NCBI GenBank assembly: GCA_021789935.1
Contig: JAJYIR010000004.1
Location: 62,001 to 126,000 of the forward strand
Reading direction: 5' to 3'
DNA from: Nitrospirota bacterium
GTDB lineage: Bacteria > Nitrospirota > Thermodesulfovibrionia > Thermodesulfovibrionales > JdFR-88
Length of the DNA stretch: 64,000 nucleotides
The notes under the pieces were generated by a model. The model did not search any database. It was not told the DNA's origin and saw only the letters and a list, made by a program, of their open reading frames with translations. Positions 38,107 through 44,880 of this stretch are shown piece after piece; within the stretch, counting starts at the first letter, position 1, and each line of letters opens with the position of its first letter. The translations under genes and the position numbers were made by a program.

Positions 38107-38622
38107 ATGGGAAAAAAAATCATCGCAGTAATTTTATTCGTGCTTGTGCCTCTGTCGTTCGCCTTTGCTGCTCAACAGGATTATCCTCTGCCTAATCCTA
38201 AGGACATCATGGCTCGTCCTCCGTTCCCTAAACAGGATCAGGGGTTGTGGCCATGCTCCCAGTGCCATGCGGCAATGCCCGTCAATTACAAGATAAGAAA
38301 ACTTACCGAGATGCATCAGGATGTCGTGCTGAAACATATGCCTGGCGGGTGGTGTTTTGACTGCCACAATCCTACCAACAGGGACACATTAAAGCTGATT
38401 ACCGGACAAACGGTCAGTTTTGATCAGTCTTATCTCGTTTGCGCCCAGTGTCATGGCTTCATATTCAAGGAATGGAAGGCAGGGTTGCACGGCAAGAGGA
38501 CGGGTATGTGGAATGGAGAGAAAAAATATTTCCAGTGCATAAACTGCCATTGGCCGCATGACCCGAAGTTCAAATCCATCAAACCCTTCCCGGCTCCGCT
38601 AAGGCCGTCGGATATAAAATAG
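38107..38622 (+). CDS. Tetrahaem c-type cytochrome
   Basis: The 171-residue protein has a signal peptide (IIAVILFVLVPLSFAFA) and four CxxCH motifs (CSQCH, CFDCH, CAQCH, CINCH), so it is a periplasmic four-haem cytochrome. It heads an operon with a four-cluster Fe-S protein and an NrfD-type membrane subunit, an arrangement used by membrane complexes that exchange electrons between quinone and periplasm. The redox partner is unknown. Confidence 0.93.
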   Translation: MGKKIIAVILFVLVPLSFAFAAQQDYPLPNPKDIMARPPFPKQDQGLWPCSQCHAAMPVNYKIRKLTEMHQDVVLKHMPGGWCFDCHNPTNRDTLKLITGQTVSFDQSYLVCAQCHGFIFKEWKAGLHGKRTGMWNGEKKYFQCINCHWPHDPKFKSIKPFPAPLRPSDIK

Positions 38623-38642
38623 CAGGGGGATTTGCAGGCATT

Positions 38643-39602
38643 ATGAAAGACAAAGACGAAAAAAAGATCGAAAAAAGAGAACTGAAGATAAACCGCAGGG
38701 CCCTGCTGAAGGGCGCTTTGGCAGGTGCGGCTACTACCATGCTCCCCCTGAACAGGGCGGACGCCTCCTTTTCGGATTTCTGGGAGTCATTTTTCCAGAA
38801 GCACTTCAGGGAGATGTCTGACGCGGAAAAGAAAAAGGTCGTTGAGCGCCTGGAGCGGGAATATGAACAAAAATACAAAAAGGCCATCAAGATCGGCATC
38901 GAGCCGGCAATGCCCGGAGTCCTGTTCGGCTACGGGCTTGACCTTTCGCGCTGCATCGGCTGCAGGACCTGCGTTTATGCGTGCGTTAAAGAGAACAATC
39001 AGTCCAGGGACCCCCAGGTCCAGTGGATACAGGTGCTCAGGTTCAAACATGGTGAATTAATGCATTGGGAGAAAGCGGATAAATATTATGACCCGAAGCT
39101 GGTTCCTGAACCCGGGTACTTTTACATGCCCGTTGCGTGCCAGCAATGCGAGAATCCGCCCTGCGTCAGGGCATGCCCTACCCAGGCGACCTGGAAAGAG
39201 CCGGATGGCATTGTGGTGGTCGATTACAACTGGTGCATAGGCTGCAGGTATTGCATGGCCGCCTGCCCTTACGGGGCCAGACATTTCAACTGGGCGGAGC
39301 CCGGCATAAAGTCTGAGGACATAAATCCGAATACCCATTATCTCGGCAATCGCCCGCGGTATAAAGGGGTTGTGGAAAAATGCACCTTCTGTGTTCAGAG
39401 GACGAGAAAAGGCAGGTATACCGCCTGCGTCGAAGCCTGCCCGGTGGGCGCCCGGAAGTTCGGAAATCTCCTGGACCCTAAAAGCGAGATCAGGTATGCC
39501 ATGGAGCATAAAAGAACCTTCAGGCTCAAGGATGAACTGAATACGCACCCGAAATTTTTCTACTTCTTTGATTTCGAGGCGGGGGAAAGGTTTACAGGAT
39601 GA
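38643..39602 (+). CDS. Periplasmic four-cluster ferredoxin-like Fe-S subunit (NrfC/DmsB/HybA type)
   Basis: The 319-residue protein has a twin-arginine signal (NRRALLKGALAGAATTML) and four cysteine groups: CIGCRTCVYAC, CQQCENPPCVRAC, CIGCRYCMAAC, and CTFC with CVEAC. This gives ligands for four [4Fe-4S] clusters. Residues 45-85 form an extra charged helix. It passes electrons between the tetrahaem cytochrome and the NrfD subunit. There is no C-terminal anchor. The following gene overlaps by 4 bases. Confidence 0.93.
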   Translation: MKDKDEKKIEKRELKINRRALLKGALAGAATTMLPLNRADASFSDFWESFFQKHFREMSDAEKKKVVERLEREYEQKYKKAIKIGIEPAMPGVLFGYGLDLSRCIGCRTCVYACVKENNQSRDPQVQWIQVLRFKHGELMHWEKADKYYDPKLVPEPGYFYMPVACQQCENPPCVRACPTQATWKEPDGIVVVDYNWCIGCRYCMAACPYGARHFNWAEPGIKSEDINPNTHYLGNRPRYKGVVEKCTFCVQRTRKGRYTACVEACPVGARKFGNLLDPKSEIRYAMEHKRTFRLKDELNTHPKFFYFFDFEAGERFTG

Positions 39603-40885
39603 TACAAACAATAAAGAATTTTATTATCGCATGGGGATCGATATTCAAAGGCAGCGCTAAGTATTACCTGTGGCTTGCGTTCCTTGCATTCCTTATGGCT
39701 ATCGGAGTGCATGCGTATATCGGACAGGCGGAGCATGGCCTTATAATGACCGCCATGAGGGACCAGGTGTCATGGGGTTTTTATATCTCCAACTTCACCT
39801 TCCTTGTGGGCGTTGCCGCGGCGGCCGTTCTGCTGGTGATCCCCGCATATGTTCACCACGACAAATCCATCAAAGAAATAGTATTGTTCGGCGAACTGAT
39901 GGCAATCACAGCTATTGTGATGTGCATAATGTTTATCATGACGGACCTTGGCCAGCCCCTCAGGGTCTGGCATATCCTTCCGCCTCCGATAGGCTTGATG
40001 CACTGGCCGTCGTCGCTTCTTGCCTGGGACGTTCTGGTGCTGAACGGTTATCTTTTCCTCAATATCATTATTGCCTTTTACATACTGTACAAGCTTTCCC
40101 GCGGGGAACACTACAACATGAAGTCCTTCGTCGGCTTCCTGATCTACCTGTCAATACCCGCTGCGATCAGCATACACACCGTAACCGCGTTTCTTTACAA
40201 CGCCGCGTTTTCCAGACCCTTCTGGAGCGCCTCCATACTTGCGCCGCGGTTCATTGCATCCGCACTATGTTCCGGGCCAGCCCTGATGCTTTTAGTGTTT
40301 CAGGTGGTCAGGAAGGTCACCGATGTGAAGATAGAGGACAAGGCTATCTTCAAGGTCGCTACCCTGATCACATATGCCATGGCTGTAAACCTGTTTTTTT
40401 TAGGCGCGGAAGTGTTTCAGTCATTCTATTCCGGAACTGCGGAGACGGCTTCGATCCATTACCTGTTCTTTGGATATAATGGGCAGACGAACCTGGTCCC
40501 GTACATATGGACCGCGGTTATATCCAATATCACCGCGTTCCTGCTGATCCTCAATCCGAAGACGCGTGAGAACTTTGTAACGCTCAACGTCGCATGCGTG
40601 CTCATGATCGTCGGAATATATCTTGAAAAGGGGATGGGCCTTGTAATTCCCGGCTTTACCCCCGATGCCCTCGGCGAGATCTATCAATACACGCCCACCG
40701 CGACCGAGCTTTTGGTCTCACTCGGAGTATGGGCTATGGGGGCAATGATCTACACCTTTTTGCTCAAGTTTGCCATTCCCGTATATACGGGAAAACTGAG
40801 ATTCGCATCCTCGGGGAAAGAGGCCATTCACGAGGTAAAGGCTGTAAGGCCCCATGTGGAGGAAGTACCCGAAGAACAACTCTGA
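39599..40885 (+). CDS. NrfD/PsrC-type integral membrane quinone-interacting subunit
   Basis: The 428-residue protein has about ten TM helices and NrfD-family features (MRDQVSWGFYISNFTFLVGVAAAAVLL, then GELMAITAIVMCIMFIMTDLGQP and WHILPPPIGLMHWPSSLLAWD). Such subunits bind menaquinol and, in some complexes, may move protons. Together with the two preceding genes it forms a three-subunit complex resembling Nrf, Qrc or Act modules but without a catalytic molybdenum subunit. A strong terminator follows. Confidence 0.93.
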   Translation: MIQTIKNFIIAWGSIFKGSAKYYLWLAFLAFLMAIGVHAYIGQAEHGLIMTAMRDQVSWGFYISNFTFLVGVAAAAVLLVIPAYVHHDKSIKEIVLFGELMAITAIVMCIMFIMTDLGQPLRVWHILPPPIGLMHWPSSLLAWDVLVLNGYLFLNIIIAFYILYKLSRGEHYNMKSFVGFLIYLSIPAAISIHTVTAFLYNAAFSRPFWSASILAPRFIASALCSGPALMLLVFQVVRKVTDVKIEDKAIFKVATLITYAMAVNLFFLGAEVFQSFYSGTAETASIHYLFFGYNGQTNLVPYIWTAVISNITAFLLILNPKTRENFVTLNVACVLMIVGIYLEKGMGLVIPGFTPDALGEIYQYTPTATELLVSLGVWAMGAMIYTFLLKFAIPVYTGKLRFASSGKEAIHEVKAVRPHVEEVPEEQL

Positions 40886-41112: not shown

Positions 41113-41832
41113 ATGAGCGAAAAAAAATCTGGTCTTACGGTCTTCATCTGTGCAGTGGCTTTAATCTTTTCAGTAAGCGCCTTCGGGCAAAAAAACGTTT
41201 CACAGCAGAAAAGCAACGCAGCAAAGAGCATCTCCTGTGTCAACTGCCACAAGACCCTAGGCGGCGAGCTCACCAAGCCTGTCACCGAATGGACGGGCTC
41301 CATTCACTATCAAAACGGTATCACCTGCAATATGTGCCATGGCGGCGATCCCGCCGCGACAACGATGGAAAAAGCCATGTCAAAAGATCACGGGTTCATC
41401 GGGGCGCCACACGGGCAGGCCCAGTTCGATGCCTGCGCAAAATGCCATGCCACTGAGGTCTCCATGTACGCAAAAAGCCTTATGGGCAAGGCCTACCTGG
41501 AAGGCAAGGGCGGCCCTTCGTGCGCCAAGTGCCACGGGCCGCATCATAACGTAATACCGGAAGTCCCCCAGCTCTGCAAGAGCTGCCACAAGGACACCAC
41601 CGGTTTTGACCAGATCGACCCGATGAACGTGACCCCGTCCACCGTACAGATGCTTTCAAAGATGAAGATAAAGCTTGGCGAGCAGAAGGTGTCCGGGACG
41701 AGGCCTGCTGCGGCCCCCAAGATCAGCGAAGATCTGGACCCTTACAAGATAGGGCTTGTGGCCTTCGGCGGCTCCATTTTTGTCTTCATCCTGGGTTATA
41801 TCATATATCTGATACTGGAAAAGAGGGACTGA
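41113..41832 (+). CDS. Membrane-anchored pentahaem c-type cytochrome of a bc-type complex
   Basis: The 239-residue protein has an N-terminal signal or anchor, five CxxCH motifs (CVNCH, CNMCH, CAKCH twice, CKSCH) and a C-terminal TM helix (IGLVAFGGSIFVFILGYIIYLIL). Position ahead of Rieske and cytochrome b genes suggests it replaces cytochrome c1 as the exit subunit. A GCAGAGGAT ribosome site precedes ATG 41113. Two bases separate it from the next gene. Confidence 0.92.
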   Translation: MSEKKSGLTVFICAVALIFSVSAFGQKNVSQQKSNAAKSISCVNCHKTLGGELTKPVTEWTGSIHYQNGITCNMCHGGDPAATTMEKAMSKDHGFIGAPHGQAQFDACAKCHATEVSMYAKSLMGKAYLEGKGGPSCAKCHGPHHNVIPEVPQLCKSCHKDTTGFDQIDPMNVTPSTVQMLSKMKIKLGEQKVSGTRPAAAPKISEDLDPYKIGLVAFGGSIFVFILGYIIYLILEKRD

Positions 41833-41833
41833 G

Positions 41834-42097
41834 ATGAGCTTTGAGATAATTCACCAAAAGAAACCCTCGTATTCGGGGGGCGTGACAGCCGTCATCGTGC
41901 TGCTGTCACTGGCGTTGCTGGGGTTGGGAGCGGCATTCGCGTGCCTGCTTATATCGGGCAAAGGCGGCAACTACGTGCTGGGTACTTTATTGGCTTTCAT
42001 ATTCCTGATTGCGGGCGTAGAGATTGTCCTGTTTGCAAGGGCCTTCGTGCCGTTCAGGGAGGTTTCGGAGGACCGCGAGGAGGAGCTGCTATGGTAG
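41834..42097 (+). CDS. Small two-TM membrane protein of the bc-type complex
   Basis: The 87-residue protein has two hydrophobic helices (TAVIVLLSLALLGLGAAFAC and VLGTLLAFIFLIAGVEIVLFA) and charged ends. It lies one base after the pentahaem gene and overlaps the Rieske gene by 7 bases, so it is most likely an accessory subunit or assembly factor of this complex. No named family is recognised. Confidence 0.75.
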   Translation: MSFEIIHQKKPSYSGGVTAVIVLLSLALLGLGAAFACLLISGKGGNYVLGTLLAFIFLIAGVEIVLFARAFVPFREVSEDREEELLW

Positions 42098-42687
42098 AAA
42101 GCAATCAGACAGAAAAAGGCATCACCCGGAGAAAATTCACATTTGGCGTAATGATCGCATCCATGGCGGGAGCGTTCGTATCCCTTTTTTCGCTCCTTAA
42201 AGTTATCACGCCGCCGAAGAAGGCCGGCTATGTGTCTACCATCAAGATCGGGGACCAGCTGGTGTACGCAAAGGGCGCCAATGCGGGCAGCGCGGTAAAG
42301 GCATCATCCATGAACGTAGGAGACTGGGTGCTGGCCTATCCCAAGGGCAAAACGTCGAATCCGGCCAACATTGTGCAGCTCATCAAGTTGAAGGAATCAG
42401 ATTTTGTGGCCCCGACAAAGGTCAATCTTACCGACCAGGGATTTGTGTCTTACAGCGCCATCTGCACTCACCTGGGCTGCACCGTCTCCTGGGTGAAGAA
42501 CACATCCAATCCGGACGCCTCCGTTACGGAGTGCTTCTGCCATAACAGTATTTTCGACCCCTCGAAAGGGGCCAAAGTCATAGGAGGCCCGGCACCGATA
42601 CCGCTTGCTCAGATCGGCATTAAGGTGCAGGGTGATTCAGTTTTCTTTACAAGCGGTTTCACCGGCCCCATAGGACCGCAGGTATAA
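42091..42687 (+). CDS. Rieske [2Fe-2S] protein
   Basis: The 198-residue protein has an N-terminal twin-arginine-like anchor (TRRKFTFGVMIASMAGAFVSLFSLL) and a Rieske domain with ligand boxes CTHLGC and CFCHNSIFD. The second box differs from the usual CPCHGS. It moves electrons from quinol at cytochrome b to the cytochrome c subunit. ATG 42091 is chosen as the start of the anchor and overlaps the preceding gene. Confidence 0.93.
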   Translation: MVESNQTEKGITRRKFTFGVMIASMAGAFVSLFSLLKVITPPKKAGYVSTIKIGDQLVYAKGANAGSAVKASSMNVGDWVLAYPKGKTSNPANIVQLIKLKESDFVAPTKVNLTDQGFVSYSAICTHLGCTVSWVKNTSNPDASVTECFCHNSIFDPSKGAKVIGGPAPIPLAQIGIKVQGDSVFFTSGFTGPIGPQV

Positions 42688-42708
42688 TAAGGCGAGGTAT
42701 AGAACATA

Positions 42709-43950
42709 ATGATCTCTAAATGGTTTGAAGAAAGGCTTGAACTAAAAAAGTTCAAGCAAAAGTACCTGACCAAGACGTTCCCCAGCCATCCTACTTACCT
42801 TCTCGGGGAAATAGCACTGTTTTCATTCATCACGCTGGTCCTGACGGGCATCTTCCTGGGCTTCCTCTATGAGCCTTCGGTAAGGCTGGTGCCGCTTTTC
42901 CACGCGATGGTGCCGGCGGCATACGCCAGCGTCGTAAAGATGGATTTAATACCGATGGGTATGCTCATAAGGCGCATCCATCACTGGTCTGCGATGCTCA
43001 TGATATCTTCCCTGATCCTTCATTTCATGAGGGTCTACTTTACCGGGGCATACAGAAAACCCAGGGAGCTCAACTGGCTGGTTGGCCTGGCGCTGATGGG
43101 CATATCGCTTGGTGCGGCCTTTACCGGTTACCTGCTGCCTTACAGCCAGTTCTCCGTGACTGCCACATCCATCGCCTATTACATGGTAAAGTCTATCCCG
43201 TGGCTGGGCGATTGGCTGTCCAGGCTTATCTTCGCCGGGGCGTTCCCATCCAATGCCATGGTTCCCCGGTTCTTCTTCTTCCACGTGATGCTGATCCCGG
43301 CCATCATCATCGGGCTTATTGGCGCGCACATGGTGATACTGGTAAAGCAGAAACATACGGAGCCGGGCTCCAACAGCGGCAGACCCGAGGCGCAGGGCGG
43401 CAAGAGGCTCATCGGCATACCGATTTGGCCCGAGCAGGCCGTCATCAGCATACCTTTCTTCCTGTTCCTGCTGTTCACGCTTACGATGCTGGCTACGTAT
43501 GTTCCGATCAACGCCATAGAAATTTACGGCGCCCCTCGGCCCGGCACGCCCGTTATGCGCCCGGACTGGTATTTCCTGTGGGTATATGGTTTCCTGAAAC
43601 TGATTCCGGGCGACCTGTCCGTAACCATATTGGGCGGCAAGATCACGCCTGAGACAATAGGCGGGGTCATCTTCCCCGGGACGGTGTTCCTCATCCTTGC
43701 TCTGATACCCTTTCTGGACCGTTTCAAAACGGCCCAGAATTATAACTCCAACCCGCTTGCCAGGCCTTTCATGACGTCCTTCGGACTTGGCGGGGGAGTA
43801 TTCATCCTTATGACAGCGGTCGCGGGCTATATAGACGTCCTTCATATCAGCCCCACGTCCATGATCGTTTACACGGTAGCAGCCACAGTCGCGGTCTGGG
43901 CAGTTGTCTTCGGTGTGCTGTCGGCCCGCAAGAAAAAGAGCGGCTCCTGA
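42709..43950 (+). CDS. Cytochrome b of a bc-type complex (PDWY type)
   Basis: The 413-residue membrane protein carries both the N-terminal four-helix haem domain (RRIHHWSAMLMISSLILHFMR and FFFHVMLIP with IGAHMV) and the C-terminal quinol-oxidation part, with PDWYFLWVYGFLK in place of PEWY. PDWY is known from menaquinone-using organisms and fits a low-potential quinone pool. It completes the pentahaem c / small TM / Rieske / cyt b set. A strong terminator follows 24 bases after the stop. Confidence 0.94.
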   Translation: MISKWFEERLELKKFKQKYLTKTFPSHPTYLLGEIALFSFITLVLTGIFLGFLYEPSVRLVPLFHAMVPAAYASVVKMDLIPMGMLIRRIHHWSAMLMISSLILHFMRVYFTGAYRKPRELNWLVGLALMGISLGAAFTGYLLPYSQFSVTATSIAYYMVKSIPWLGDWLSRLIFAGAFPSNAMVPRFFFFHVMLIPAIIIGLIGAHMVILVKQKHTEPGSNSGRPEAQGGKRLIGIPIWPEQAVISIPFFLFLLFTLTMLATYVPINAIEIYGAPRPGTPVMRPDWYFLWVYGFLKLIPGDLSVTILGGKITPETIGGVIFPGTVFLILALIPFLDRFKTAQNYNSNPLARPFMTSFGLGGGVFILMTAVAGYIDVLHISPTSMIVYTVAATVAVWAVVFGVLSARKKKSGS

Positions 43951-43973
43951 TCCAGCACACATCCTGAAAAAGA

Positions 43974-44006
43974 GGGGCTCCGGAATTCCGGAGCCCCTTT
44001 TCTTTT
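43974..44006. terminator. Strong terminator between convergent genes
   Basis: A perfect 24-base palindrome (43974-43997, GGGGCTCCGG around AATT) is followed by TTTTCTTTT on the plus strand and by an A/T-poor A-rich run on the other side. It ends the bc-complex operon and may also serve the convergent cytochrome gene. Confidence 0.85.
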
Positions 44007-44029: not shown

Positions 44030-44224
44030 TTATTTTTTCTGCCCCGCAGCGGGGAGTTTTTCCAGCGAGTCATACGCGTTCTGCATGTGCCTCGTAATGG
44101 TTTCAAGGTCAAACCTGTGCCAGTCAAGCTTGGCTGAATGAAGCGCTATCCTGGCGTCATTCAAGGCGGCTGCCGCCCCGGAACCCTTCGCCGGAAGGGT
44201 ACAGTTTTTCATCCGCGCTGACAA
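44030..44224 (-). pseudogene. Detached C-terminal part of the frameshifted pentahaem cytochrome
   Basis: In the frame one base off from the cytochrome gene, an open stretch encodes ALNDARIALHSAKLDW followed by a helical tail ending AAGQKK. This is the helical end I expect in such cytochromes. It has no start of its own. A one-base excess or two-base loss between 44157 and 44251 would join the two parts. Confidence 0.6.
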
Positions 44225-44792
44225 GCGCGCTACCCTCTCTCAGGGAAAGCACTACCGCCTTCGCATACCGGGGGATATACGCCAATGCGCTTAAAGCGCC
44301 TGTTGAATTATGGCACCTCGCACATACCGCCGCCATATCATCAGGAGTCAGCAATATTGTTTTCATTGAACCATGGCAGGTGACACAATCGGGGCCGTTG
44401 CCTATTGCCTCCAGCCTCCGGTAATGAACACTCTGCTTGAATTTGAATTCTTCCGCACCATGGCATTTACCGCATGTCGAAGGGATGTTCCTGTAATAGA
44501 CCTTGCTATTGGGATTGCTCGAACCAAGCACCCCCTTGTGGGCATCTGCTTTATTTGCGGCGTTCGGGTTCCCGCCGTGGCATTTGTCACACGTCACCCC
44601 GCGCATCTCGTGCACAGAGCCTTTCCATCCATGGGATTTCGCCCCCACGAAACTGCCTTGCGGGAGCTTTGAATGGCAGGCGGCACAGGAATTCACGGAG
44701 ACCTCCGGAACGGCACTTGCTGAAAGAGCAAAAAATATTAAAACTCCGCACATTATAAAAGTGCAGGCAAGTAAACGACCGGGCTTAAGCAT
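44157..44792 (-). CDS. Pentahaem c-type cytochrome, probably frameshifted near its C-terminus
   Basis: The 211-residue product has a signal peptide and five CxxCH motifs (CAACH, CDKCH, CGKCH, CVTCH, CARCH), so it is an exported multihaem cytochrome of the NapC/NrfH-neighbour or cytochrome c3-like type. The end (LYPSGEGFRGGSRLE) looks like a wrong-frame tail, and the expected helix continues in another frame to 44030. ATG 44792 has AGAGG upstream at a good distance, and a GTG at 44801 is the alternative. It is convergent with the bc operon. Confidence 0.8.
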   Translation of the reverse strand: MLKPGRLLACTFIMCGVLIFFALSASAVPEVSVNSCAACHSKLPQGSFVGAKSHGWKGSVHEMRGVTCDKCHGGNPNAANKADAHKGVLGSSNPNSKVYYRNIPSTCGKCHGAEEFKFKQSVHYRRLEAIGNGPDCVTCHGSMKTILLTPDDMAAVCARCHNSTGALSALAYIPRYAKAVVLSLREGSALVSADEKLYPSGEGFRGGSRLE

Positions 44793-44880
44793 TTTTTTCA
44801 CCTCTTCAGGCTGGGAATGAATACGATTGGCCGTCTCATTTTCAGGTTTTTAAATGCTTGCTCTACCTCCTGGTAAAATT

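What the first reader, a model, noticed from the sequence alone, without database searches (positions are those of the whole stretch)
41113..43950. bc-type complex with a pentahaem cytochrome and an extra two-TM subunit in place of cytochrome c1
Gene order pentahaem c (C-terminal anchor), 87-residue two-TM protein, Rieske, cytochrome b. No cytochrome c1 or diheme c subunit is present. The small protein is unnamed and coupled to Rieske by a 7-base overlap, so it is a candidate new subunit.
Basis: partly seen in the sequence, partly recalled or inferred. Interest (0 to 1): 0.5.

Follow-up and report, generated by a model that had tools for sequence, protein, structure and literature searches.

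The report
Split Rieske anchor in bacterial bc complex
A small unnamed membrane protein next to a respiratory enzyme of an uncultured Nitrospirota bacterium looks like a piece that actinobacteria build into their Rieske subunit, here made as a separate protein beside a five-haem cytochrome in place of the usual two-haem one; it is a new variant of a known respiratory complex, not a new kind of machine.

Summary
Gene order and coordinates are correct: pentahaem c (C-terminal anchor), 87-aa two-TM protein, Rieske, fused cytochrome b. The small protein is real and conserved: the same 16 of 395 genomes of the phylum carry it and this cytochrome b. It is not "in place of cytochrome c1" and not a new kind of subunit. 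By profile matches, register and gene order it is likely the free-standing counterpart of the first two helices of actinobacterial QcrA, a three-TM Rieske protein: joining it to Rieske raises the QcrA-model score from 85.8 to 101.4 bits in one in-register stretch. Three haloarchaeal clusters carry a weakly related domain (DUF7318) just before Rieske. The cluster is colinear with qcrC-qcrA-qcrB; the pentahaem protein sits where dihaem QcrC sits. Per-sequence similarity is weak and lies mostly in TM2 plus a cytoplasmic E-V-x-E-x-R box, and some tests failed. Best reading: a menaquinol-oxidising QcrCAB-like complex with split QcrA and pentahaem cytochrome.

The parts
41113..41832 (+). Pentahaem c-type cytochrome with N-terminal signal/TM and C-terminal TM anchor; occupies the QcrC position
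   Evidence: Five CXXCH; TM stretches 7-25 and 213-231; all 15 haem-motif residues invariant in 18 aligned rows (18 of 26 loci aligned); Nonomuraea and Microbacterium QcrC show the same two-TM layout with two CXXCH
41834..42097 (+). 87-aa two-TM protein, likely counterpart of the QcrA N-terminal hairpin / DUF7318
   Evidence: 14 of 14 family members match NF050121 and 14 of 14 match PF24002 at E<=0.1, no other family more than 3; reverse profile test 26 of 26 above the best decoy; forward test failed
42078..42083 (+). AGGAGG, likely ribosome-binding site for Rieske, inside the Glu codons of the small gene
   Evidence: Read; AGGAGG is in all 26 junction strings printed
42091..42687 (+). Rieske [2Fe-2S] protein, one TM, twin-arginine motif TRRKF at residue 12
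   Evidence: PF00355 E=3.5e-6; NF050121 positions 113-316, 85.8 bits, cut-off 275; ligands
42709..43950 (+). Cytochrome b, fused b6+IV type, Qo motif PDWY at 285, no Cys
   Evidence: NF050120 291.3 bits, cut-off 500; best solved relative chain 7q21_B, E=3.1e-68
43973..43998 (.). GC-rich palindrome flanked by T runs, terminator-like, between cytochrome b and the convergent second pentahaem gene
   Evidence: 11-pair stem listed on the minus strand (a consensus match); plus-strand tail TTTTCTTTT read
44157..44801 (-). Second pentahaem c-type cytochrome, possible electron acceptor of the complex; inverted here
   Evidence: Five CXXCH; downstream of cytochrome b on the same strand in 18 of 25 loci

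Best explanation
This is a menaquinol-oxidising Rieske/cytochrome b complex of the same branch as actinobacterial QcrCAB and haloarchaeal Rieske/cytb complexes. In actinobacteria QcrA is one chain: a Sec-inserted two-helix hairpin, a cytoplasmic loop, then a Tat-inserted third helix carrying the Rieske domain. Here that chain is two genes: the 87-aa hairpin (both ends presumably in the cytoplasm) and a one-TM Tat-type Rieske protein, divided in the loop where Sec hands over to Tat. The hairpin presumably packs beside cytochrome b, and its cytoplasmic box (FREVSEDRE) presumably docks the Rieske stub and cytochrome b, replacing the covalent link of U-shaped QcrA. Electrons should go from menaquinol through the Rieske cluster to the C-anchored pentahaem cytochrome (QcrC position) and then perhaps to the second pentahaem cytochrome; the other electron returns through haems bL/bH to the Qi site. 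Overlapping genes and an embedded ribosome-binding site should make hairpin and Rieske in fixed ratio. Shown: gene order, motifs, profile matches, co-occurrence, the junction, presence of TatC and of MqnA/MqnD-type menaquinone genes. Inferred: topology, assembly, docking, electron path.
For: Model matches: NF050121 (actinobacterial QcrA) matches 14 of 14 family members, no other NCBIfam model more than 3; matched model positions lie within 22-99, the hairpin, while Rieske takes 113-316 of the same model; joined query 85.8 to 101.4 bits, one stretch 45-284 to 59-316. PF24002 (DUF7318) matches 14 of 14 small proteins, 3 of 3 haloarchaeal proteins directly upstream of Rieske (E 5e-4 to 6e-3) and the Nonomuraea QcrA hairpin (E=0.0062), all under its cut-off. 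Specificity: NF050121 finds 3 places at E<=10 in the own genome, two Rieske genes and the small gene (E=0.094); PF24002 at E<=0.01 matches 5 of 148 genomes, each time this gene. Reverse test: a profile of 2 QcrA and 3 haloarchaeal hairpins ranks 26 of 26 small proteins above the best of 211 membrane decoys; four column-shuffled and one reversed profile put at most 2 of 26 there. hhalign with the QcrA hairpins P=4.5e-4, in register. Gene order equals qcrC-qcrA-qcrB in Nonomuraea and Microbacterium. Cytochrome b tree: this clade, Haloarchaea and Actinobacteria together at 100/99. Co-occurrence 16 and 16 of 395, the same genomes. Twin-arginine motif in 26 of 26 Rieske starts; TatC and two MqnA/D-type genes in the genome. 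Loop residues E128 V129 D131 E132 R133 of S. coelicolor Rieske (named in passages of PMC5449189) line up with E76 V77 E79 D80 R81; this alignment is mine, by eye.
Against: Per-sequence scores are weak: the window protein is at E=0.0093 for QcrA and 1.1e-4 (22.7 bits, cut-off 27) for DUF7318; it does not match Pfam QcrA_N directly. hhalign probabilities are low: 33% with QcrA, 19% with the haloarchaeal hairpins, 3% between those two. The narrow profile of the small family does not separate QcrA or haloarchaeal proteins from membrane decoys (Halarchaeum rank 2, QcrA ranks 5 and 7, Halomicrobium 30, Haloferax 184), finds no QcrA among PDB sequences at E<=10, and the haloarchaeal profile found nothing in the own genome at E<=10. 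The joined query aligned to PDB QcrA chains over Rieske only. The signal needs TM2 plus the box: part before the box alone AUC 0.56, box alone 0.93. In 61 relatives NF050121 also gives 10 other non-Rieske, mostly N-terminal matches at E<=1 and, at such loose limits, rings in 11 of 14 control genomes, E. coli among them. The Microbacterium QcrA hairpin does not match DUF7318. The invariant tail EEELLW is confounded by the Rieske ribosome-binding site and start codon. The 26 small proteins are related, so not independent.
Confidence: 0.74

Rival explanations
1. An unrelated supernumerary two-TM subunit, specific to this lineage, that resembles the QcrA hairpin only because hydrophobic hairpins look alike.
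For: Weak pairwise scores and low hhalign probabilities; the forward profile test fails; C. glutamicum bcc-aa3 has several supernumerary subunits (passages of PMC8795186).
Against: 14 of 14 matches to two independent models, at the model position expected from the neighbouring Rieske match; reverse test 26 of 26 above decoys with shuffled controls failing; a DUF7318-like protein in the same slot in three haloarchaeal clusters.
Confidence: 0.14
2. A biogenesis factor (for Rieske or haem c insertion) made with the complex but not staying in it.
For: Overlap and embedded ribosome-binding site couple it to Rieske, a Tat-type protein; no haem or iron-sulfur motif in the protein.
Against: Found only in genomes with this cytochrome b, although Rieske-domain matches occur in 45 of 61 relatives by my reading; the corresponding hairpin is a built-in part of QcrA in a solved structure (PMC8616580 passages).
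Confidence: 0.12
3. A Thermus FbcD-type subunit: the four-gene order equals fbcCDFB, whose small membrane protein FbcD is recalled as copurifying with T. thermophilus bc1. Not exclusive with the best explanation, since FbcD may be the same element.
For: Same order c - small membrane protein - Rieske - b (content of fbcCDFB recalled; the operon name was seen in passages of PMC3764938); best solved relatives of the Rieske protein are 3fou and 1nyk, Thermus proteins by recall; a Deinococcus plasmid has a small two-TM-like ORF before Rieske and cytochrome b.
Against: No FbcD sequence could be reached; the Deinococcus ORF does not match the small family (rank 91) nor DUF7318; Deinococcus cytochrome b falls outside the clade, on a long branch.
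Confidence: 0.3

Closest known systems
Actinobacterial menaquinol:cytochrome c reductase QcrCAB (bcc complex)
   Same: Gene order, cytochrome b nearest to QcrB among solved proteins, C-anchored c-type cytochrome, Rieske with twin-arginine motif, hairpin matching QcrA helices 1-2
   Different: QcrA as two genes; pentahaem instead of dihaem QcrC; a second pentahaem cytochrome nearby; NCBIfam scores below the curated cut-offs
Haloarchaeal Rieske/cytb clusters with a DUF7318-like protein
   Same: Separate membrane protein directly upstream of Rieske, then cytochrome b; C-terminal box E-V-A-E-x-R; best cytochrome b hits among plasmid records (40-42%)
   Different: The haloarchaeal protein is 191-214 aa with extra N-terminal TM segments; in the three clusters read no c-type cytochrome is annotated and a molybdopterin oxidoreductase follows cytochrome b (directly in one, after a small ORF in two)
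Thermus FbcCDFB bc1 complex (Mooser 2005: title seen in a reference list; content recalled, paper not held)
   Same: Order c1 - small membrane protein - Rieske - b
   Different: Monohaem c1 (recalled); FbcD sequence not compared
Methanoperedens Rieske/cytb cluster (PMC4683180, passages)
   Same: Two pentahaem c-type cytochromes and two hypothetical proteins with Rieske and cytochrome b
   Different: A further c-type subunit is reported; sequences not compared here
Anammox Rieske/cytb complexes (PMC12954380, passages)
   Same: Multihaem c in place of c1/f
   Different: Hexa- or octahaem c, b6/subunit IV split, NAD(P) oxidoreductase subunit

Membership tests
Rieske/cytochrome b (bc) complexes | Rieske cluster ligands CxHxGC and CxCH | tested here: met
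   CTHLGC at 125, CFCHNS at 148
Rieske/cytochrome b (bc) complexes | Cytochrome b with two His pairs and a Qo P-x-W-Y motif | tested here: met
   His at 91/105 and 192/207, PDWY at 285; PF13631, PF00033 and PF00032 over cut-off
Rieske/cytochrome b (bc) complexes | Physical complex with quinol oxidation activity | not testable with these tools
   Needs purification
QcrCAB (actinobacterial bcc) | QcrA with three TM helices before the Rieske domain in one chain | tested here: not met
   Two genes: 2 TM + 1 TM
QcrCAB (actinobacterial bcc) | Dihaem, C-terminally anchored QcrC | tested here: not met
   Five CXXCH, though C-anchored
QcrCAB (actinobacterial bcc) | QcrB-type cytochrome b | tested here: inconclusive
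   291.3 bits, cut-off 500; sister to Haloarchaea+Actinobacteria in the tree
QcrCAB (actinobacterial bcc) | Gene order C-A-B | tested here: met
DUF7318 (PF24002) | Score above Pfam gathering cut-off 27 | tested here: not met
   22.7 bits, E=1.1e-4, though 14 of 14 members match at E<=0.1; the three haloarchaeal proteins are also under the cut-off
QcrA_N (PF19297) | Direct match to the Pfam QcrA_N model | tested here: not met
   Not among the 14 families listed at E<=0.1 for the 14 members
Thermus FbcD | Sequence similarity to FbcD | not testable with these tools
   No Thermus chromosome reachable; gene order only
Solved QcrA fold | Structural match of the hairpin to QcrA helices 1-2 | tested here: inconclusive
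   Model mean pLDDT 78; searches give no match at E<=0.001, see Tried and rejected

The most novel reading that the evidence does not exclude
The free-standing hairpin is the ancestral state of this bc branch: Nitrospirota and Haloarchaea keep hairpin and Rieske as separate genes, and the dual Sec/Tat-targeted three-TM QcrA of actinobacteria arose by fusing them. The conserved cytoplasmic box kept in the separate hairpins then cannot serve the Sec-to-Tat hand-over; it must be an assembly or docking element. That would answer, by comparison, why the actinobacterial loop is conserved although changing it had little effect on either translocase (PMC5449189, passages).
Probability: 0.35. Interest if true: 0.6.

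Novelty: new variant of a known kind. Interest (0 to 1): 0.42.

Why it matters
It gives a likely identity to an unnamed protein and to DUF7318, links three distant bc complexes, and offers a natural split version of a dual Sec/Tat membrane protein. That makes the role of the conserved QcrA cytoplasmic loop testable. The pentahaem c in the QcrC slot suggests how a Q-cycle enzyme could feed multihaem electron chains in uncultured Nitrospirota.

Tried and rejected
Small protein as a cytochrome c1 substitute: rejected; it has no haem motif and the pentahaem gene holds that position. Structure comparison of the hairpin: Foldseek has no match at E<=0.001 and VIA-align lists generic helical hairpins; no QcrA chain is among the rows shown; uninformative. 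PDB sequence search with the small-family profile: only an LH1 chain at E=0.44. Joined small+Rieske query by phmmer against PDB: alignments covered Rieske parts only. Forward profile test failed to separate. tblastn of the small protein in plasmids: no match at E<=10. Haloarchaeal profile over the own genome: nothing at E<=10. Pentahaem AlphaFold model too poor to use (pLDDT 67); no PDB relative by profile at E<=0.01. First tree read four outgroup rows on the wrong strand; redone. Papers: ten searches; in the listings shown (10 to 25 papers where more were found) no title or abstract opening describes this cluster or a QcrA-hairpin identity for DUF7318; most subscription papers are not held.
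Full report
WHAT IS THERE. The window is part of a 2.47 Mb genome. Close relatives in a named collection are Nitrospirae MAGs (contig JAKAEG010000211.1, for instance, has the length and match position of the same-genus contig G001:C133). Searches confirm the four genes and the 7-base overlap. The pentahaem gene starts 227 bases after a DsrP-like gene, the small gene one base after the pentahaem gene, cytochrome b 21 bases after Rieske. A terminator-like palindrome follows at 43973-43998, then a convergent second pentahaem gene (44157-44801).

CONSERVATION. A search with the small protein matched 16 of 61 relatives at E<=0.01: 11 strong (E<=5e-31) and 5 weak ones (E 0.003-0.007) that I do not count. 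The same 11 of 61 have the close cytochrome b (69-100% identity; next best 40%). In a wider draw, 16 of 395 genomes of the phylum, in 10 of 170 genera, have the small gene at E<=1e-6 and exactly those 16 have this cytochrome b at E<=1e-80. Among 25 named loci (several being the same contigs as G genomes), 24 show pentahaem - small - Rieske - cytochrome b. The other (L079) was lost by my ORF filter; its genome has the genes. In L085 the pentahaem reading is incomplete (three haems), in L076 cytochrome b runs off the contig, and in L082 the Rieske frame ends in an unlike tail. Members include MAGs labelled Deltaproteobacteria (L084, L088, L091).

JUNCTION. In 26 of 26 rows the Rieske start (23 ATG, 3 GTG) is formed by the last Leu and Trp codons of the small gene, and every printed junction carries AGGAGG inside the preceding Glu/Lys codons. 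So the invariant tail EEELLW is at least partly a nucleotide constraint: L073 and L078 have Lys at position 82 yet keep AGGAGG. The stretch before it (F-x-x-F-R-E-V-S-E-D-R) is not explained that way.

WHAT THE SMALL PROTEIN IS. Pfam: DUF7318, E=1.1e-4, below the cut-off, 14 of 14 members. NCBIfam: N-terminal part of actinobacterial QcrA, E=0.0093, 14 of 14 members, best 2.9e-4. Rieske itself takes positions 113-316 of that model; joined, 45-284 aligns to 59-316 in one stretch with 101.4 instead of 85.8 bits. In 61 genomes that model matches the small gene in 11 of 11 genomes that have it (E 0.0024 to 0.30), against 10 other matches outside the Rieske region at E<=1; at that limit it also rings in 11 of 14 control genomes. 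DUF7318 at E<=0.01 matched 5 of 148 genomes, each time this gene; other carriers may fall under that limit. Haloarchaeal plasmids carry a 191-214 aa protein directly before Rieske and cytochrome b whose C-terminal half matches DUF7318 (3 of 3), as does the Nonomuraea QcrA hairpin (E=0.0062) but not the Microbacterium one. A five-row profile from these puts 26 of 26 small proteins above 211 membrane decoys; QcrA alone 22 of 26 above the best decoy (AUC 0.995), haloarchaea alone 18 of 26 (0.996); four shuffled profiles AUC 0.44-0.86, reversed 0.70. Against: the opposite direction fails, the part before the box carries no signal alone (AUC 0.56), hhalign probabilities are 33% and 19%, and searches found nothing for the hairpin. 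I therefore call homology likely, not proven.

THE COMPLEX. Cytochrome b is closest to a bcc cytochrome b among solved proteins (7q21_B, C. glutamicum by recall). In a 27-row tree it forms one clade with Haloarchaea and Actinobacteria (100/99), apart from proteobacterial, Sulfurovum, Deinococcus and b6-type rows (Deinococcus and Sulfurovum are long branches). It has PDWY and no Cys, so no b6-type Cys-linked haem is expected (established knowledge). Rieske has a twin-arginine motif; the genome has TatC and two MqnA/MqnD-type genes of menaquinone synthesis. The pentahaem protein has the signal-plus-C-anchor layout and the place of QcrC.

MECHANISM. Published work (passages seen) says actinobacterial Rieske helices 1-2 enter by Sec and helix 3 by Tat, with a twin-arginine motif between (PMC5449189), and that M. 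tuberculosis QcrA is U-shaped with helices 1/2 and helix 3 as arms joined on the cytoplasmic side (PMC8616580). The division here lies in that joining loop. The authors of PMC5449189 found conserved loop residues dispensable for Sec and Tat and suggested a role in cofactor insertion or in contacts with the complex. A similar box in proteins that carry no third helix favours the contact role. Assembly, docking and the electron path through two pentahaem cytochromes are inference.

NOVELTY. The Thermus fbcCDFB order (operon name seen in PMC3764938; FbcD as copurifying subunit recalled) and the Methanoperedens cluster (PMC4683180, passages) are precedents for a small membrane protein and for pentahaem partners. 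The combination, and the link of DUF7318 to QcrA's hairpin, did not appear in the listings of the searches named under Tried and rejected, which cover open-licence papers only.

Noticed in passing
window 38107-40885: DsrJ/DsrO/DsrP-like trio directly upstream; the DsrJ-like protein has four CXXCH, DsrP is over its NCBIfam cut-off and DsrO just under. In the stretches read it accompanies the bc cluster only in genomes of the window's own family.
   Followed up: partly
window 44157-44801: Second pentahaem gene is inverted and convergent here and in same-genus loci L054/L068 and L055, but follows cytochrome b on the same strand in 18 of 25 loci.
   Followed up: yes
G000:C14:92836-93720: A second Rieske plus b6-like short cytochrome b in the same genome, so two Rieske/cytb sets.
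   Followed up: no
L069:3886-8825: Pentahaem and small genes appear twice in tandem with identical phmmer scores (267.0 and 127.5), the second copy after the second pentahaem gene: duplication or assembly artefact.
   Followed up: no
L087:816-2682: A second, distant Rieske/cytochrome b pair lies upstream of the cluster on the other strand.
   Followed up: no
L092, L093, L100: Haloarchaeal plasmid clusters join a DUF7318-like protein, Rieske and cytochrome b to a molybdopterin oxidoreductase, with an ethylbenzene dehydrogenase-related protein in L092 and L093; L093 and L100 also have a 70-72 aa ORF after cytochrome b with no Pfam match over cut-off.
   Followed up: no
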